A stretch of DNA of 64,000 bases from Candidatus Meridianibacter frigidus (GTDB taxonomy: Bacteria; Vulcanimicrobiota; Vulcanimicrobiia; Vulcanimicrobiales; Vulcanimicrobiaceae): assembly GCA_003243975.1 (NCBI GenBank), contig QHBJ01000040.1:62001-126000 (forward strand), given 5' to 3'. Position numbers and translations under genes: made by a program. Below are positions 54,572 to 64,000 of the stretch, piece after piece. Positions within the stretch are counted from its first letter, which is position 1. Every line of letters begins with the position of its first letter. The notes below the pieces were generated by a model, which saw nothing but the letters and a program-made list of their open reading frames with translations, had not been told where the DNA came from and made no database searches.

Positions 54572-54901
54572 CTGCAGGCTTGGCTTCTTCTCGCCGTCGT
54601 GCTGGCGGTTATGGTCGCGCTCGCCAGCGCGGCGATACCGCTGCTGAGCTTGGCGGGCGCAACGCGCAAACGTCTTGACGCGCTCTCCGATCACCCACTT
54701 GTTACGGCAGCACGAGATGGCCAGCGCGAAGTGTCGCGCCTGAACGGCGCAGCGGCCGAATTAGCAGATCAAGCCCAAGCTATGCAGTCGGCCGTCGGCG
54801 CACTCAGGCAACCGTTGCGGGCTTCGCCATTTTCAAGTGTCGCTGCGGAGACAGTGCGAATCCGCAGCGCGTTTCGGGAACTTATCGAAGTTCTGCGATA
54901 G
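54572..54901 (+). CDS. Small single-helix membrane protein, probable CTG start
   Basis: An approximately 109-residue protein with one N-terminal helix (AWLLLAVVLAVMVALASAAIPLL) and a long soluble helix, VSRLNGAAAELADQAQAMQSAVG. The nearest ordinary start (GTG 54599) begins inside the helix; CTG at 54572, 3 nt after the previous stop, gives an intact one and sits behind AAGGAG. The soluble helix may form a coiled coil. It overlaps aroA tail to tail by 20 nt. No family recognised. Confidence 0.65.
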   Translation: MQAWLLLAVVLAVMVALASAAIPLLSLAGATRKRLDALSDHPLVTAARDGQREVSRLNGAAAELADQAQAMQSAVGALRQPLRASPFSSVAAETVRIRSAFRELIEVLR

Positions 54902-56168
54902 TTCGGTCGGCGTTTTGGGCGGCCGCCCATTGCGGCACGAATCCCGGAAAACTTACGTCGATGCATGCAGCATCGTCAATTTCCAACGGTCCGCAGAGCG
55001 CTCCCAATGCCGCCGCCGCCATGGCAGTACGATGGTCGCCGCCCGTCTGCACGCTCGCTCCAGCCGCGTTTGGAATACCGCCGGTGATCCAGATTGCGTT
55101 GGTATCGGACTCGGTGGCAACTCCGGCGCTTCGCAGCATTTGCTCGATGGCCGCAACACGATCGGATTCCTTGCCTCGAAGATCGGAAATTCCGGCGATT
55201 CGCGTCTGGCCTTGCGCCACAGCCGCTGCAACGCTCAAAATGACGATTTCATCGATCGCGCGAACGGTCAGCGATGAATCTATGGTAATGCCGCGCAAGG
55301 CCGAAAATTCGGCGCTGAGGTCGGCGACCGGTTCACAGTCCCACTCGCGCCGGTTACCGATTTCAATGCGCGCTCCCATCTGCAGCAGTGCGTCAAGCAG
55401 CCCCGAGCGGCTTGGGTTAATGCCGACGTCGCGAATGGTCAAACGTGAGCCGGGCGTTACGACCGCTGCCACCAAGAAGAAGGCCGCTGCAGAGAGATCG
55501 CCAGGAATGCGAGTATCTCGCGGCTCGATGTGCGCGCTCCTCATCGCAACGCGATCCGCATCGAACACGATGTCGGCATTCCACGATTTCAAGAGCCGCT
55601 CGGTATGATCGCGGGATCCACCGCACCGTTCGAGCGTAACCGGAGTGCCCGAGTAGACGCCTGCTAGCAGCAAGGCTGATTTTATTTGCGCCGAGGCGGA
55701 GAGTAAGATGAAGTGGCGAGTTTGCGCCGGCAATTGCCCGGCGATTTCGAGCGGTAAGGCTCCGCCACTCGTGGTCACGCGGGAGCCGAAGGCGCGCAGC
55801 TGAGCGGCGACCGGCTCCATTGGCCGGGATGACAAGGATTCATCGCCCTGTAGTCGCGCGTGTAGGCCGGCGCCGGCGCAGGTCCCCATGATTAAGCGGG
55901 CCGTGGTCCCGGAGTTCAGGCAGTTGACGGGCGCTTCCGGAGCGTGCAACCGGCCGCCTTGAACCTCGGCATCCGGCCCATCGCGTTTCGCGGACGCCCC
56001 AATCGAACTGAGTGCGCCGATTGTTGCATCGAGATCTCGACCCGGATTGAGATTCTGCACGCGGACCTTTGCCTGCGTGCTGGCCGCTATGAACAGCGCT
56101 CGATGCGAAATGGATTTATCGCCTGGAACGGCGATTTCGCCGCGCAACGCGCCTCGCTGAAAGATCAC
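54882..56168 (-). CDS. aroA: 5-enolpyruvylshikimate-3-phosphate synthase
   Basis: A 428-residue shikimate-pathway enzyme that adds enolpyruvate to shikimate-3-phosphate. The N-terminal GEIAVPGDKSISHRALFIAA contains the phosphoenolpyruvate-binding Lys, and LNSGTTARLIMGTCAGAG and LSASAQIKSALLLAG are the other substrate blocks. The C-terminal DHRTAMAAAALGAL carries the shikimate-binding Asp-His-Arg. The NSGTTARL form (Gly-Thr rather than Ala-Met/Leu at the PEP site) is the ordinary sensitive-type sequence. It stands alone between plus-strand genes. Confidence 0.97.
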   Translation of the reverse strand: MIFQRGALRGEIAVPGDKSISHRALFIAASTQAKVRVQNLNPGRDLDATIGALSSIGASAKRDGPDAEVQGGRLHAPEAPVNCLNSGTTARLIMGTCAGAGLHARLQGDESLSSRPMEPVAAQLRAFGSRVTTSGGALPLEIAGQLPAQTRHFILLSASAQIKSALLLAGVYSGTPVTLERCGGSRDHTERLLKSWNADIVFDADRVAMRSAHIEPRDTRIPGDLSAAAFFLVAAVVTPGSRLTIRDVGINPSRSGLLDALLQMGARIEIGNRREWDCEPVADLSAEFSALRGITIDSSLTVRAIDEIVILSVAAAVAQGQTRIAGISDLRGKESDRVAAIEQMLRSAGVATESDTNAIWITGGIPNAAGASVQTGGDHRTAMAAAALGALCGPLEIDDAACIDVSFPGFVPQWAAAQNADRTIAELR

Positions 56169-56224: not shown

Positions 56225-57895
56225 GTGAGTCAATACGTCTACTCCATGTACCGCATCGGCAAAACCGTGCCGCCGAAGCGCGAAATCCTGAAAGACATCT
56301 CGCTAAGCTTTCTTCCCGGCGCCAAAATCGGAATTCTTGGGCTGAATGGCGCGGGCAAGTCGACGGTTCTGCGGATTATGGCCGGCGTCGATACCGAGTT
56401 CGACGGTGTCGCCGAACCGATGCCCGGGATAACCATCGGCTATCTGGAGCAAGAGCCGAAACTCGATCCGGACAAGACCGTTCGTCAAAGCGTCGAGGAA
56501 GCGTTCGCCGGACTCTTCGATGTTCGGAAGCGCCTGGAAGAGGTTTACGCCGCCTATGCGGAGCCCGACGCCGACATCGGAGCGCTCGCAGAGGAACAGG
56601 CCAAGTTGGAGTCCGCACTCTTCTCACAAGACGGCGATGATTTGGAGCATCAGCTCGAAATCGCGGCCGATGCCCTGCGGCTGCCGCCCTGGGAGATGCC
56701 GATTGGGCCGCTTTCGGGAGGCGAGCAGCGGCGCGTCGCGCTCTGCCGGCTACTGCTCTCGAGGCCGGATATGTTGCTGCTTGACGAGCCCACCAATCAT
56801 CTTGATGCCGAAAGCGTCGAATGGCTCGAGGGTTTCTTGCAACGCTTCCCGGGGACCGTGGTGGCCGTTACGCATGACCGCTACTTTCTGGATAACTCGG
56901 CGCAGTGGATTCTGGAACTCGATCGTGGGCGCGGTATACCATGGAAGGGCAACTACAGCTCTTGGCTCGATCAAAAACAGCAACGCCTGGCGCAGGAAGA
57001 AGCAACGGAATCGGCCCGCCAGAAGGCGCTCAAGCGCGAACTGGAATGGGTGCGTAGCAGTGCAAAGGGGCGCCATGCCAAGAGCAAGAGCCGCATTGCA
57101 CGCTTCGAAGAGCTGGCGAGCTACGAGCACCAAAAACGCAATGAAACGCGAGAGCTCTTCATTCCGGTGGCCGAGCGCCTCGGCGATCAAGTCATCGAAT
57201 TCACGGTGGTAAGCAAAGCGTTTGGGGATCGGTTGCTGATGGATAAGGTCAGCTTTCGGGTCCCCCCGGGCGCGATTGTCGGCATCATCGGTCCCAACGG
57301 GGCCGGCAAGAGCACGTTGTTTCGCCTGATTACCGGCCATGAGCAGCCCGACGCGGGCGAGATTAAGATTGGGCCGACCGTAAAGCTTGCAATGGTCGAT
57401 CAGTCGCGCGAATCGCTCGAAAACGAAAAAACGGTATTCGAGGCCGTCAGCGGCGGCCGTGACTTGATGATAGTGGGCCGCTTTGAGATGCCGGCGCGCG
57501 CATATTTAGGACGCTTTAACTTCAAGGGTGGCGACCAGCAGAAGCGTGTTGAAAATCTTTCCGGTGGGGAACGCGGACGCTTGCATCTTGCAAAAACCTT
57601 GGTGAGTGGCGCAAACGTGCTGCTGCTGGACGAGCCCTCAAACGACCTGGATGTGGAAACGCTGCGCGCTTTGGAAGACGCACTCAGTGAGTTTGCGGGC
57701 ACGGTGTTGGTGGTGAGCCATGATCGGTGGTTTTTGGATCGCATCGCCACGCACATTCTGGCCTTCGAAGGCGACTCGCGCGTGTTTTTCTATGAAGGGA
57801 ACTATCAAGAGTACGAAGCCAACAAACGCGAGCGCTTAGGTGAAGAAGCAGCTCGTCCCCACCGCCTGCGTTTTCGGCCGCTTGCAGTTCGGTAG
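56225..57895 (+). CDS. ettA: ABC-F ATPase EttA, energy-dependent translational throttle
   Basis: A 556-residue protein with two ATPase cassettes: Walker A GLNGAGKSTVLRI and GPNGAGKSTLFRL, signatures LSGGEQRRVALC and LSGGERGRLHLA, Walker B MLLLDEPTNHLD and VLLLDEPSNDLD. The arm and PtIM linker between them lie near residues 235-330. EttA binds the ribosomal E site and gates elongation by ADP/ATP ratio. A strong AAAGGAGAC sequence precedes the GTG at 56225. The C terminus ends after LRFRPLAVR. Confidence 0.96.
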   Translation: MSQYVYSMYRIGKTVPPKREILKDISLSFLPGAKIGILGLNGAGKSTVLRIMAGVDTEFDGVAEPMPGITIGYLEQEPKLDPDKTVRQSVEEAFAGLFDVRKRLEEVYAAYAEPDADIGALAEEQAKLESALFSQDGDDLEHQLEIAADALRLPPWEMPIGPLSGGEQRRVALCRLLLSRPDMLLLDEPTNHLDAESVEWLEGFLQRFPGTVVAVTHDRYFLDNSAQWILELDRGRGIPWKGNYSSWLDQKQQRLAQEEATESARQKALKRELEWVRSSAKGRHAKSKSRIARFEELASYEHQKRNETRELFIPVAERLGDQVIEFTVVSKAFGDRLLMDKVSFRVPPGAIVGIIGPNGAGKSTLFRLITGHEQPDAGEIKIGPTVKLAMVDQSRESLENEKTVFEAVSGGRDLMIVGRFEMPARAYLGRFNFKGGDQQKRVENLSGGERGRLHLAKTLVSGANVLLLDEPSNDLDVETLRALEDALSEFAGTVLVVSHDRWFLDRIATHILAFEGDSRVFFYEGNYQEYEANKRERLGEEAARPHRLRFRPLAVR

Positions 57896-58019: not shown

Positions 58020-61000
58020 CTACCGCCCTGTCAGTGATTGAAGTCGCTGCCGCGCTTCCGCGGCGCTGGCTGCGGGGAATGAGCCAAAGCTCACATGCGC
58101 GCCTCTCCCGGGGCTTACGTGCAGGGTAACGTTAGCCGCGCCGCGCTTCATCGCGACTGACGCAGCACTCAGGTCTTTGTTTCGCCACCACATGGCCGCG
58201 AGTGTGTCGGATTTTTCGTCGTAAACGCCGATATAACTCGTTAGCGCATAGGCTTTGTCGACGTTAAATGCTTGCGCATTGCCTTCGGTCAGTACGGTCG
58301 CGCGCGCCCGGAAATCATTAGCCGATCGCGCCGCCAACGAAGAGATCACATCCACGCTAGCCGAGTTTGCCTGGTACTCAACCGTGAACGACGGGCCGCC
58401 GGGAACCAGCACTATTTTCTTGTTGAAGTGCACCGGGCTTAGCGCAAGGTCGCTGGCATCGTAGCTCAGCTCAACGCTGGCTGGATTTCTCGTGCTCAGG
58501 ACCGTCGTACGATATGACCGGTTGAACGTTCCCACGTTGAGCGGATGAGTATAACGAGCGATGTAATCGCGTGGTGACGCCGCGGGCGGATCGGTGACCG
58601 CGTCGCGTAGCGCTCCAACCGTTGCGATGATGTTACGCCCTGTGCGTTTGTCTTCAAAGATCAATGCGCGACCTCCGGCCGCCGGCGCTACGAGCAATCG
58701 CACATATGCATTTTCCATCAGCACGCTCTGCGAGCCGTCCTGCAGGAAATCGCCAGTCCGCACGGTCGCACCGTCGGTTGGCCGATAGCGCTCGCAGAGG
58801 CGGCACGCCAAATACTGCGACTCTCCGATTGGCAGATCTGCCGGTGCCTGCCGACGGCCAAAACGCGCATCTGCTTGGGAGAAACGTGGGGCGCTTCGCG
58901 CCGCGTCGCCGAGCGGAAGCAGTAGTGTACTGCGTGGTTTTGCTACGAGGTGGCTTCCGTTCAATGCCGGAAACGCCCGTACTCGCAGACTACGCAGTGA
59001 CTGCACCCGGTCGCTGTAGTTGGTCACAATGAGAAATCCCGCGCGTGGATTTGTATTTGACACGAGAAGCGCGGCATTGCCTTGCGCTCCGCTAATCTGG
59101 GACTGCGCGAATGCTGGAAAAGACATCGCGACGTGCGGATCTATAACTACCCCATAATGCGCGCGCTCCTCCTGCGAGGTAAACGCCGGATCTTGTAGGG
59201 CGCACGTTATGCTCGCAACACGGCAGTGCTGCAACGCGGCGATCGTTGCGGCAGCCGCAGAAGAAAAATCCGCGTTGGTCGTAGCCCAGCGCGATGCGCT
59301 CCAGAGAATGGCCATATCAGCGGCGATATGCGTTTGCGCAAGTTGCGCGCCGTACGTTCGAATAAAATTTCCTATCTTAGCTGTAGGAACGGCCCGGGCT
59401 TGACGGGCCGATTGAAATGAAAGCGCGGCGTCCCATCCGTAAAAGACATTGGTCCAAGGGGCTTCCCACCCGGACGGATACATCGTGTCTTGCACCGGAA
59501 AGTTCACGATCCCATGCGCGCCCATCTGCAGCATCGTGCCGATGGCGAGTTCAGTGTTTGCTGGATCCGCTGGCCGGGGCGCACCCTCATCGGCACCCTG
59601 CAGCCATCCGGCCTGAAACTCGCTGATCATGACCGGATACTTGTGCTGCGTCTGCAAGAGGGCCGTGGAGAACTCAAGCTGCGACCGGTCGTGTTCCCCG
59701 ATGCTTTCGACGTCCGACTGATACCAATTGCCCCAGGCCCAAACGGGCGAAGACGCCGTGACCTTCATTTGATATGTATTGATGAAAGTCGGCACCCCGG
59801 GTCCGGTGACGCCGTGCACCACCGAATCCAAGTACCGGACGTACGCCTGGAAATGCGGTGCGGGCCAAGTTTGATTGTCGATATAGGCACCCTGGTCGTC
59901 GTCCAGTGCGACCGCGATAACATCGCCGGACCAGGGCTTGATTTCAGTGAGTGCTCGACGTAACCAGCGCGTCGCATATTTCATGTGCGTAGCGTTGTTC
60001 ATCCATTCCGCAGCCGCGTCGTCGGAGCGCGCATTCTGCAACGTCGCGGTCGCCGGATAGCGGCCTTCGAGGATATCGTGGAGCGGCATGTTGTATTCCG
60101 GGCGCCGGAGCAGCCAGTCAGGGTAGCCGCCGTTCTTCCATTCGTTCCGGATGACGGGGCCGGGCCGGATGATCGTTTTGAACCCCATGTTATGCACGAG
60201 ATTGAGCAAGTAGTGCAGGTCGCGCCGGGGGCCGGTGCGCCCGGTGAAGTCAAAGTTGTCATCGCTGAGCTCGTGCCAATTCCAGATGAGGTACAGGTCG
60301 ATGGTGTTGATGCCAAGCGATTTATAGGCTTCTAGCGATACCTTCCATCGCGATCTGGGGAGTCGCTCGTAGAAAAAGGCCGCGCCGTACACGAAAAATG
60401 GCTTCTGTTCTACCGTGAAAACCGGATAGCCGTTCTGCTGCACGACCGCGCTGTGGCCGTACGAAGCGCCCGCAGTCCGCGGCGCGACAACGCACAGCGC
60501 CGCAACAATCGCCGCCGCGAACGGCCATGTTCGCTGCACTCGTGCTAGTCCGAGGAAGAGAACAACTCCCACGGCGACCGCTGCAAAGCTCAGCTCCATC
60601 GCCAGTTGCCCGGTGGATTGAAATGCAAATCCCCAGCCAACTAATGCGACAAGCGCGGGAAGCGGGAAAAGCCACATGCGGAAGGGAGCGCGTTCGCCTT
60701 TCACTCGTAAGACAAAAACGGCGGTAATTTGCGCGACGGCCTGCACAAGGACGATTGCGGCCAGCAGGAGTGCGATCACCGTGTCCAAGGAAAAGAATGA
60801 CGCACAGATGGAGGCGAGGCCGATAACCAAGAGCGCGACGTCGGGAAATTGTCCGCTGGGATGCAGATGCCGAAAGACCGGAAAGAAGTTTCCGTCTCGA
60901 GCCGCTGCAAACGGAACGCGGGCAAAGCCGAGCAGATTTCCGTACACTGACGCAAAAGCCGTTACCAGGACGAGGATCGTGAAAATTACTGCGGCAACCC

Positions 61001-61874
61001 CTCCCCAGCTGCGAAGCACCACGGTCGTTCCGACATATTGGGCCGCAGTCGAGTCCAGCTTGAGCAAGTGCTGCCACGGGACTGCACCGAGAACGCCGTA
61101 TTGCATGGCCACGTACAGCAACGCCACGACTAGAACGGACACGACAATTGAAAGCGGGATCACGCGCTTCGGATTCTCTACCTCCTCGCCGATCAGCGCT
61201 GCGTCGGCATAGCCGACGTAGTCGTATAGGGTGAGGTACAGCGAACTGCCGACGGCCAGCAAGAAGGCCCACGTCCAGTTCGGATGCATGTCGGTCGAAA
61301 GGGCCTGAGCTGGGTTGAAGTGTGGAACGGATGCCGCAATGACCACGAGCAGCGTGACCACGGCCGTTATGCACAGCACGATGCTCATTTTCGCGACCGA
61401 TGTGATCCGGCGGTATAACATCGTAATGGCCAGAATGCCTAACCCGATCTTCACCGCGTCTGACGTGAGCCAGGATGTGTTTATTGCCGGCCAAAGGTAG
61501 CTGGCGTAACTGACAAACCCGATATAACCACTCGCGAGCAGCAGCGGTGCATAGAAAATGAACTGCCAGTTGAACAGAAACGCGAACAGGCGGCCCCACC
61601 GCTCGCGTCCGAAGGCCTCTCGCAAATAGACGTAGGTGCCGCCCGATCCGGGAAAGCGCGAGCTGAGTTCGGCCCACACCAACCCGTCGCAGAGTGCAAC
61701 GATTGCGCCGGCGAACCAACCCCACAGCGCGGCGCTTCCGTGCAGCTTTCCGACCACCAGCGGAATCGTTATCAACGGACCGATGCCGATCATCGTAATC
61801 ACGTTGACCGCAATCGCGCTGCGCAGTCCCACGCCCCGAATCATGCGGCCGCATTCGGTGAAGTCTGCGCGCAA
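58020..61874 (-). CDS. APC transporter fused to a GH35-type glycosidase domain
   Basis: A 1284-residue protein without internal stops. Residues 15-445 are an APC-family permease: NVITMIGIGPLITIPLVV, GGTYVYLREAFG and about 12 helices. Helix 13 (TWPFAAAIVAALCVVAP, ~449-465) resembles a signal peptide and puts the rest outside the cell. From about 490 comes a GH35/beta-galactosidase-like barrel (LGINTIDLYLIWNWHE at ~520-535, IIRPGPVIRNEWKNGGYPDWLL at 568-589). The nucleophile-type Glu is E752 (ISEFQAGW); the position of the acid/base Glu is D660 in LDDDQG instead of ENEYG. C-terminal beta domains follow. Start TTG 61874 or ATG 61844. Confidence 0.88.
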   Translation of the reverse strand: MRADFTECGRMIRGVGLRSAIAVNVITMIGIGPLITIPLVVGKLHGSAALWGWFAGAIVALCDGLVWAELSSRFPGSGGTYVYLREAFGRERWGRLFAFLFNWQFIFYAPLLLASGYIGFVSYASYLWPAINTSWLTSDAVKIGLGILAITMLYRRITSVAKMSIVLCITAVVTLLVVIAASVPHFNPAQALSTDMHPNWTWAFLLAVGSSLYLTLYDYVGYADAALIGEEVENPKRVIPLSIVVSVLVVALLYVAMQYGVLGAVPWQHLLKLDSTAAQYVGTTVVLRSWGGVAAVIFTILVLVTAFASVYGNLLGFARVPFAAARDGNFFPVFRHLHPSGQFPDVALLVIGLASICASFFSLDTVIALLLAAIVLVQAVAQITAVFVLRVKGERAPFRMWLFPLPALVALVGWGFAFQSTGQLAMELSFAAVAVGVVLFLGLARVQRTWPFAAAIVAALCVVAPRTAGASYGHSAVVQQNGYPVFTVEQKPFFVYGAAFFYERLPRSRWKVSLEAYKSLGINTIDLYLIWNWHELSDDNFDFTGRTGPRRDLHYLLNLVHNMGFKTIIRPGPVIRNEWKNGGYPDWLLRRPEYNMPLHDILEGRYPATATLQNARSDDAAAEWMNNATHMKYATRWLRRALTEIKPWSGDVIAVALDDDQGAYIDNQTWPAPHFQAYVRYLDSVVHGVTGPGVPTFINTYQMKVTASSPVWAWGNWYQSDVESIGEHDRSQLEFSTALLQTQHKYPVMISEFQAGWLQGADEGAPRPADPANTELAIGTMLQMGAHGIVNFPVQDTMYPSGWEAPWTNVFYGWDAALSFQSARQARAVPTAKIGNFIRTYGAQLAQTHIAADMAILWSASRWATTNADFSSAAAATIAALQHCRVASITCALQDPAFTSQEERAHYGVVIDPHVAMSFPAFAQSQISGAQGNAALLVSNTNPRAGFLIVTNYSDRVQSLRSLRVRAFPALNGSHLVAKPRSTLLLPLGDAARSAPRFSQADARFGRRQAPADLPIGESQYLACRLCERYRPTDGATVRTGDFLQDGSQSVLMENAYVRLLVAPAAGGRALIFEDKRTGRNIIATVGALRDAVTDPPAASPRDYIARYTHPLNVGTFNRSYRTTVLSTRNPASVELSYDASDLALSPVHFNKKIVLVPGGPSFTVEYQANSASVDVISSLAARSANDFRARATVLTEGNAQAFNVDKAYALTSYIGVYDEKSDTLAAMWWRNKDLSAASVAMKRGAANVTLHVSPGRGAHVSFGSFPAASAAEARQRLQSLTGR

Positions 61875-61897: not shown

Positions 61898-62928
61898 ATG
61901 CAATCTGAATTAGCGCGACTATTGGGTATCGAGGGCGATCTTTGCATCGATTTCGTCGACAGCCCGGCGTTGCACGACAACCCGCTTGGTGACCCGTCGA
62001 CGCGTCCAGTCGCCGTTTACGTTCCGCCCAAGTACGAGCCGCAGGGTTCCAAACGCTACCCTGTTCTCTATGTGCTCCACGGTTATACAGGGGACGTGGC
62101 GGCATTGGTTTCATCGCGCCCGTGGGAGACGAACGTGGTCCAATGGGTCGACCGTCTCATCTGCGAGCAGAAGATGCCAGCGGCAATACTGGTGGTCGTA
62201 GACGGATTTACGCGACTGGGCGGTTCGCAGTATGTCAACTCCATTCACAACGGCGACTATGCGACCTACGTCATTCGCGATGTGATCGGCCACGTAGACG
62301 GAAGCTATCGCACGAATTCCTCGGAGGGCGGCCGCGCGGTACTCGGCAAATCTTCAGGTGGTTTCGGGGCGCTATATTTATCGATGAGCTATCCGGGCAT
62401 CTTCTGCGCCTTTGCTTCCCACAGCGGCGATGCGTATTTCCCCTACGCGCAGCCTCGCGGCTTCCCCACGGCCCATCGCACACTGGAGCGTTTCGACTGG
62501 GGTATACGCGCTTTCGTGGAAAACTTCGAGCGGCAGAGTAAGCGGCTGCCGCATGAGTACGAAACGATGGAGATGCTCGGTTATACGGCCGCCTATACGC
62601 CACGCAGCGCCAACGCCTTCGATCTCGACCTACCGTTCGACCGAGCGACGGGCGCCCTGCGCGAAGAAGTATTTGCGCGCTGGCTGGCGTTTGACCCCGC
62701 ACAGATGTGCCTAACCAAAGGCCCGGAACTGCAGCGTCTGCGGCTGCGTTATCTCGATTGCGGTCGTAAGGATGAGTATGCGTTGGATATTGGGGCGCGC
62801 GTCACGGCAGCACGCATGAAAGAGATGGGCATGAGCGTGCATCACGAAGAATTCGACGACGACCACCGCAATGTCGGATACCGCTATGCGGTATCGCTGC
62901 CGCTGCTGGCAAATGTCTTGGAGAGTGT

Positions 62929-62932
<4 letters not shown>
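61898..62932 (+). CDS. Alpha/beta-hydrolase esterase (EsterD/antigen 85-like)
   Basis: A 344-residue hydrolase of the putative esterase family. The oxyanion side is PVLYVLHGYTGDVAALVS, the nucleophile Ser lies in LGKSSGGFGALYLSMSYP (GKSSG) and the catalytic His in EFDDDHRNVGY. The first 30 residues and absent signal peptide suggest a cytoplasmic enzyme. Substrates could be S-formylglutathione, feruloyl or enterobactin-type esters. It is divergent from the transporter-glycosidase gene with 24 nt between, so the two may share promoter control and a glycan-ester pathway. Confidence 0.88.

Positions 62933-64000
<1,068 letters not shown>

What the first reader, a model, noticed from the sequence alone, without database searches (positions are those of the whole stretch)
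58020..61874. Single-chain APC transporter plus extracellular GH35-like glycosidase
One uninterrupted frame joins a 12-helix APC permease (residues ~15-445), a 13th signal-like helix and an external GH35-like domain. An odd helix count places the glycosidase outside, where it could release a product that the permease half imports. The combination is unknown to me. An ordinary explanation, two genes fused by a lost stop in this genome only, is possible; the helix before the barrel still looks like a signal peptide.
Basis: partly seen in the sequence, partly recalled or inferred. Interest (0 to 1): 0.85.

Follow-up and report, generated by a model that had tools for sequence, protein, structure and literature searches.

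The report
Conserved permease–glycosidase fusion with internal signal
A single gene, conserved across one family of uncultured soil bacteria (Eremiobacterota), encodes an amino-acid-type membrane transporter joined to a secreted sugar-cutting enzyme through what looks like a cleavable export signal in the middle of the protein, so one gene probably makes a matched importer and enzyme.

Summary
One open frame (58020-61874, minus; natural start ATG 61844, 1274 aa) joins an APC/LAT-type permease to a GH35/GlmA-like glycosidase. It is no accident of this genome: 50 of 99 searched genomes of the same Eremiobacterota family carry both halves adjacent on one strand (51 genes, 50 in one frame, 20 genera with an intact frame), at a conserved locus. 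In them the permease half was deleted in place and usually a standalone permease from a separate clade stands elsewhere; no fused genome has such an extra copy (20/33 versus 0/50).

The '13th helix' reads best as an internal Sec signal peptide: permease tail (R..R.WPF), 11-18 mostly hydrophobic residues, then A-x-A in 33 of 34 relatives. The split glycosidases begin there with ordinary signal peptides. Best model: a precursor cut by signal peptidase I into permease and periplasmic enzyme. Uncleaved tethering is the main rival. The active site is invariant but unusual (acid/base Glu replaced by Asp; GlmA-like Asp before it), suggesting an amino-sugar substrate. Cleavage, activity and substrate are inferred, not shown.

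The parts
60534..61844 (-). APC/LAT-type permease half (residues 11-447; natural ATG at 61844)
   Evidence: Pfam PF13520 3.6e-33; sequence and Foldseek matches to BasC, LAT1, y+LAT1; relatives start at the same Met
60519..60527 (-). WPF motif (residues 450-452): natural C-terminal tail of the permease, hence the fusion junction
   Evidence: Most standalone relatives end a few to about 15 residues after WPF; WPF or WPY precedes the hydrophobic stretch in all 34 fused relatives examined
60465..60545 (-). Internal Sec signal-peptide-like segment (residues 444-470), predicted SPase I cut after A470 (TAGA|S)
   Evidence: A-x-A in 33 of 34 relatives; 25/28 versus 16.8+-2.3 in shuffles of the tail; homologous to N-terminal signal peptides of split relatives; pN/pS 0.33-0.54
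59190..60452 (-). GH35/GlmA-like (beta/alpha)8 barrel (residues about 475-895; end approximate)
   Evidence: PF01301 1.4e-29; AlphaFold2 pTM 0.89; Foldseek 8oug, 5gsm, 6jow, 5gsl
59895..59903 (-). Invariant D658-D659-D660 (LDDDQGAY): D659 = GlmA Asp178 position, D660 = acid/base position (Glu179 in GlmA)
   Evidence: Alignment to 5gsl; invariant in the aligned relatives; roles of Asp178 and Glu179 from PMC6566704
59619..59621 (-). E752, candidate nucleophile in invariant (S/A)EFQAGW
   Evidence: Invariant in 29 relatives; register with GlmA Glu347 not established by sequence
58023..59189 (-). C-terminal beta-rich domains (residues 896-1284), variable in length and sequence
   Evidence: AlphaFold2 secondary structure; low conservation in A2
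61898..62932 (+). Divergent cytoplasmic CE1-like esterase, the most constant neighbour (mostly 60-75% identical)
   Evidence: PF00756, PDB 8z91, synteny in fused and split genomes
62929..63477 (+). Conserved 182-aa protein without a Pfam match, part of the conserved locus
63474..63956 (-). Cys/Met-metabolism PLP enzyme (387 aa in the genome; cut by the window end), conserved flank
54882..56168 (-). AroA (EPSP synthase), conserved upstream flank in many relatives

Best explanation
An ancestral gene fusion of one Eremiobacterota family. The gene is translated as one precursor: a 12-helix APC/LAT-type permease whose basic C-terminal tail (R..R.WPF) serves as the n-region of an internal Sec signal peptide, which carries a GH35/GlmA-like glycosidase across the inner membrane. 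Signal peptidase I most likely cuts after the A-x-A site (A470 here), giving equal amounts of an inner-membrane permease and a periplasmic glycosidase. The two act in one uptake route: the enzyme releases a product, plausibly an amino sugar or amino-sugar conjugate because of the GlmA-like Asp before the catalytic position, the permease imports it, and the divergently encoded esterase may process it inside. Shown: the fusion, its conservation, the ancestral state with repeated fissions, the invariant active site, the signal-peptide-like linker. Inferred: cleavage, enzyme activity, substrate, import coupling, the role of the esterase.
For: Fusion in 50 family genomes with 50 of 51 genes in one frame, one copy of each half per fused genome except G102, which has two fused genes; two more pairs (G012, G017) are cut only by contig ends. 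The GH tree broadly follows the RpoB tree and fused and split rows interleave, so the GH is vertical and fusion ancestral. Split GHs sit in the same AroA / esterase / PLP-enzyme slot with the permease half gone. Standalone permeases form one clade (94/99) apart from G008 and the diverged G004; present in 20 of 33 genomes with an unfused GH against 0 of 50 fused, Fisher 7e-11 without tree correction. Linker: A-x-A in 33/34, h-region mostly 11-18 residues, 25/28 versus 16.8+-2.3 in shuffles, pN/pS 0.33-0.54. Within one genus, split GHs start with ordinary signal peptides where the fused ones have the linker; G005 (fused) LHARAASGG and G032 (split) LHARAASG share the c-region. Fused genomes such as G010, G014, G019, G024 have no ATG/GTG/TTG near the start of the h-region that could restart translation. 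The genome encodes two SPase I and an Omp85 protein, so a diderm cell is likely.
Against: No proteomic, topological or biochemical data. A-x-A is easily met in Ala-rich sequence (shuffled mean 16.8 of 28), and shuffles ignore shared ancestry. Some split GHs (G008, G029, G036) have very short N-terminal hydrophobic stretches without a clear A-x-A. Of the 13 genomes with GH but no close permease most are incomplete MAGs, yet G023, G036 and G123 are about 95% complete, and G004 and G020 have the permease without the GH, so the pairing is not absolute. The acid/base Glu is Asp in every member. The amino-sugar substrate rests on one residue.
Confidence: 0.6

Rival explanations
1. The chain stays whole: the 13th hydrophobic segment is an uncleaved anchor that tethers an active glycosidase to the outer face of the permease, a one-chain enzyme-transporter device.
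For: One translation product is conserved over at least 20 genera; tethering would give a reason for keeping the fusion.
Against: Short h-region and A-x-A in 33/34 relatives; the same point is an N-terminal signal peptide in split sisters; repeated fissions show that tethering is dispensable; no defined domain packing (pTM 0.57).
Confidence: 0.27
2. The GH-like domain is not an enzyme but a non-catalytic partner that stabilises or tunes the permease, a bacterial analogue of the 4F2hc or rBAT heavy chains of animal heteromeric amino acid transporters.
For: The permease is LAT-like in sequence and fold; the canonical acid/base Glu is replaced by Asp; animal LATs carry an inactive glucosidase-fold ectodomain (PMC7589757).
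Against: The barrel active site is the most conserved part (RPGPVIRNEWxNGGYP, LDDDQGAY, EFQAGW), unlike a decayed enzyme; an Asp acid/base is known in the GH2 exo-glucosaminidase CsxA (PMC6566704); many genomes encode the GH away from the permease.
Confidence: 0.1
3. The frame is an accident: a stop lost in this genome, or an assembly error.
For: About 20 family genomes carry both halves as separate genes.
Against: 50 genomes carry the fusion, in one frame except G015, at the same syntenic place; the linker is under purifying selection.
Confidence: 0.02

Closest known systems
[quoted passage not shown]
   Same: Best sequence and Foldseek match; conserved WNWHE and RPGP..EW(K/R)NGG segments; Asp directly before the acid/base position, which in GlmA binds the C2 amino group (PMC6566704)
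   Different: Sequence similarity limited to about the first 110-180 residues; acid/base Glu179 is Asp here; exported; fused to a permease
Ignavibacterium beta-1,2-glucosyltransferase IaSGT, GH35 (7vkw)
   Same: Similar barrel plus beta-domain fold
   Different: Has Asn-Glu (Asn175-Glu176), no signal peptide, cytosolic (PMC8861115)
Bacterial and animal LAT/SLC7 permeases (BasC, LAT1, y+LAT1)
   Same: APC fold, 12 helices, best solved matches
   Different: No secreted enzyme fused behind the C-terminus; about 20% identity
Heteromeric amino acid transporters (LAT1-4F2hc, b0,+AT-rBAT)
   Same: LAT-type permease paired with a glycosidase-fold domain outside the membrane
   Different: Two genes, type II heavy chain, GH13-like fold, no glucosidase activity, disulfide link; here GH35-like with an intact-looking active site, fused behind the permease
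FbcH (cytochrome b/c1 precursor of Bradyrhizobium; from memory, not found in the library)
   Same: Polytopic membrane protein fused through an internal signal peptide to a periplasmic protein and cut into two
   Different: Unrelated proteins; cleavage shown there, only predicted here

Membership tests
APC superfamily permease (AA_permease_2) | Profile match above the curated cut-off | tested here: met
   PF13520 115.6 bits versus 27
APC superfamily permease (AA_permease_2) | APC fold with 12 helices | tested here: met
   AlphaFold2 model; Foldseek TM-score 0.7-0.8 (target-normalised) to LAT1, BasC, AdiC
APC superfamily permease (AA_permease_2) | Transport of amino acids or amines | not testable with these tools
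   needs a transport assay
GH35 | Profile match above the curated cut-off | tested here: met
   PF01301 104 bits versus 27, all 29 members match, but only about 106 of 319 positions
GH35 | (beta/alpha)8 barrel followed by beta domains | tested here: met
   AlphaFold2 pTM 0.89, Foldseek 3.9e-21 to 8oug; full-length TM-scores low (about 0.4)
GH35 | Acid/base Glu at the end of strand 4 | tested here: not met
   Asp (D660) in every member; alignment to 5gsl. The protein is therefore called GH35-like, not a GH35 member
GH35 | Nucleophile Glu at the end of strand 7 | tested here: inconclusive
   Invariant E752 in (S/A)EFQAGW, but no sequence alignment to a solved GH35 in that part
GlmA-type exo-beta-D-glucosaminidase | Asp before the acid/base residue (Asp178), binding the C2 amino group | tested here: met
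   D659 in the aligned position; role in GlmA from PMC6566704
GlmA-type exo-beta-D-glucosaminidase | Acid/base Glu179 | tested here: not met
   Asp at that position; CsxA (GH2) also uses an Asp (PMC6566704)
Polyprotein with internal Sec signal peptide (FbcH-like) | Hydrophobic segment with basic flank and A-x-A after a complete membrane protein, one frame | tested here: met
Polyprotein with internal Sec signal peptide (FbcH-like) | Cleavage by signal peptidase I | not testable with these tools
   needs N-terminal proteomics or pulse-chase
Heteromeric amino acid transporter | Separate type II heavy chain with inactive GH13-like ectodomain | tested here: not met
   Same frame behind the permease, GH35-like fold, conserved active site

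The most novel reading that the evidence does not exclude
A single-chain enzyme-transporter device: an uncleaved (or re-associating) LAT-type permease and GH35-like ectodomain that works as one unit, releasing an amino-sugar product at the mouth of the transporter, evolved independently of the animal LAT/4F2hc pairing of a LAT-type permease with a glycosidase fold.
Probability: 0.27. Interest if true: 0.82.

Novelty: new variant of a known kind. Interest (0 to 1): 0.6.

Why it matters
It is a family-wide, ancient fusion of an importer with a secreted hydrolase. In several lineages the permease half was lost in place while a permease of the same subfamily but of another lineage stands elsewhere, which points to a needed enzyme-importer pair. 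It gives a testable case of a bacterial polyprotein split by signal peptidase I, a way to predict the substrate of an otherwise unassignable permease from its fused enzyme, and a GH35-like clade with an unusual Asp at the acid/base position. A LAT-type permease paired with a glycosidase fold also invites comparison with human LAT1-4F2hc.

Tried and rejected
Lost stop or assembly error in this genome: rejected. Internal translation start making the GH separately: some fused genomes have no start codon near the signal region, so it is not general; in G000 itself a GTG at V446 remains possible. Standalone permeases as simple fission products: rejected except G008 (and probably G097, same genus), because the others form a separate clade. 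Homology search for the nucleophile region alone: no PDB match. EttA as species marker: incomplete retrieval, replaced by RpoB. Literature for an APC-GH fusion, for FbcH and for HAT-like bacterial systems: nothing direct. sigma-70 promoter scan: none found. RNA element search: only the neighbouring tRNA.

Full report
OBSERVATION. The minus-strand frame 58020-61874 is open for 1284 codons. A TTG opens the mechanical ORF, but nearly all relatives begin at the residue that is Met11 here, so ATG 61844 is the likely start. Residues 17-453 match AA_permease_2 and 486-595 match the first third of GH35.

CONSERVATION. In 149 genomes of the phylum the GH half is found in 85 of 99 genomes of the same family and 0 of 50 others at E<=1e-30. 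The permease half at E<=1e-60 is in 83 genomes. Combining coordinates: 50 genomes carry both halves adjacent on one strand (51 genes); the gap is a multiple of three in 50, and the exception, G015, has frameshifts. Intact fused frames occur in 20 genera, counted from the tables. G012 and G017 look split only because both halves run into contig ends. No fused genome has a second copy of either half except G102, which has two fused genes. The broader genome-contig scan returned only Eremiobacterota.

FISSION, NOT RECENT FUSION. Fused and split rows interleave in the GH tree, which broadly agrees with RpoB: (G008, G011, G035), (G005, G029, G032, G036), (G007, G018, G028), (G003, G006, G013, G016, G030) and (G000, G031) recur. 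The GH thus looks vertical and the permease half was lost several times, within genus g8 among others. Synteny agrees: SRPBCC - FmdB - AroA - GH/permease (left) - esterase (right) - 182-aa protein - PLP enzyme; in split genomes the GH keeps its slot and the permease is gone from between GH and esterase. The standalone permeases, placed elsewhere, form one clade (94/99) that also holds two genomes of another family; G008, nested among the fused, looks like a real fission, and G004 is diverged. They occur in 20 of 33 genomes with an unfused GH and 0 of 50 fused (Fisher 7e-11, not corrected for relatedness; the 20 leave out nothing but count G012 and G017, whose halves are cut by contig ends, among the 22 split pairs and remove them). 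I read this as replacement of the lost half, i.e. a functional pair, although some genomes have one half only.

JUNCTION. Most standalone permeases end a few to about 15 residues after a WPF motif. In all 34 fused proteins examined WPF or WPY is followed by a mostly hydrophobic stretch (11-18 residues in most), commonly a Pro or Gly, and A-x-A in 33. A-x-A in the 12 residues after the stretch is seen in 25 of 28 against 16.8+-2.3 when those residues are shuffled. Split GHs begin there with ordinary signal peptides, e.g. in genus g8, and the c-region of fused G005 (LHARAASGG) recurs in split G032. The linker evolves faster than the domains but with pN/pS 0.33-0.54, as expected for a signal peptide and not for non-coding read-through. 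Several fused genomes have no start codon nearby for a separate GH product. The genome has two type I signal peptidases and an Omp85 protein. I conclude that the '13th helix' is a former N-terminal signal peptide whose n-region was replaced by the permease tail, and that cleavage is more likely than not.

ENZYME. AlphaFold2 gives a confident GH half (pTM 0.89) nearest to archaeal exo-beta-D-glucosaminidases and then the IaSGT glucosyltransferase. Invariant residues cluster in the barrel active site. In the alignment to 5gsl, LDDDQG faces IDDEPS: the residue before the catalytic position is Asp, as in GlmA, where Asp178 binds the C2 amino group, while the acid/base Glu179 is Asp here. The same review notes an Asp acid/base in the GH2 exo-glucosaminidase CsxA (PMC6566704). 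An active amino-sugar-directed enzyme is therefore plausible but unproven; because a defining residue was tested and not met, I call the domain GH35-like.

PERMEASE AND NEIGHBOURS. The permease half resembles BasC, y+LAT1 and LAT1. The domain arrangement is undefined in the model (pTM 0.57; linker pLDDT below 50), so nothing supports a domain over the pore. The divergent CE1-like esterase has 53 bp between the two start codons and is the most constant partner; its role is unknown.

VERDICT. Cleavage, activity, substrate and coupling remain to be measured.

Noticed in passing
L092:3103-6327 (+), genome G015: One frame of 1075 aa joins a GH35 domain (PF01301 5.9e-37) and BetaGal_ABD2 to multicopper-oxidase domains (PF07732, PF07731), with a lipoprotein-like N-terminus; another unusual GH35 fusion in this family.
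   Followed up: partly
L055 (G004 C1:1022300-1035500): In G004 a standalone permease (46% identical) sits in the same locus but between the esterase and the PLP enzyme, and no GH is present; possibly a pre-fusion arrangement or a rearrangement.
   Followed up: no
L056 (G015 C49): The fused gene is interrupted by frameshifts in G015, either assembly error or a decaying copy.
   Followed up: no
window 56225-57895: EttA is beside the fused gene here, but a match at E<=1e-150 was found in only 18 of the 25 family genomes searched, and it is not a neighbour in the relatives examined.
   Followed up: no
L169:2835-4256 (G000, just beyond the window): A cystathionine beta-synthase-like PALP-CBS gene follows the Cys/Met PLP enzyme, so the locus borders transsulfuration genes; a link to the permease substrate is unknown.
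   Followed up: no
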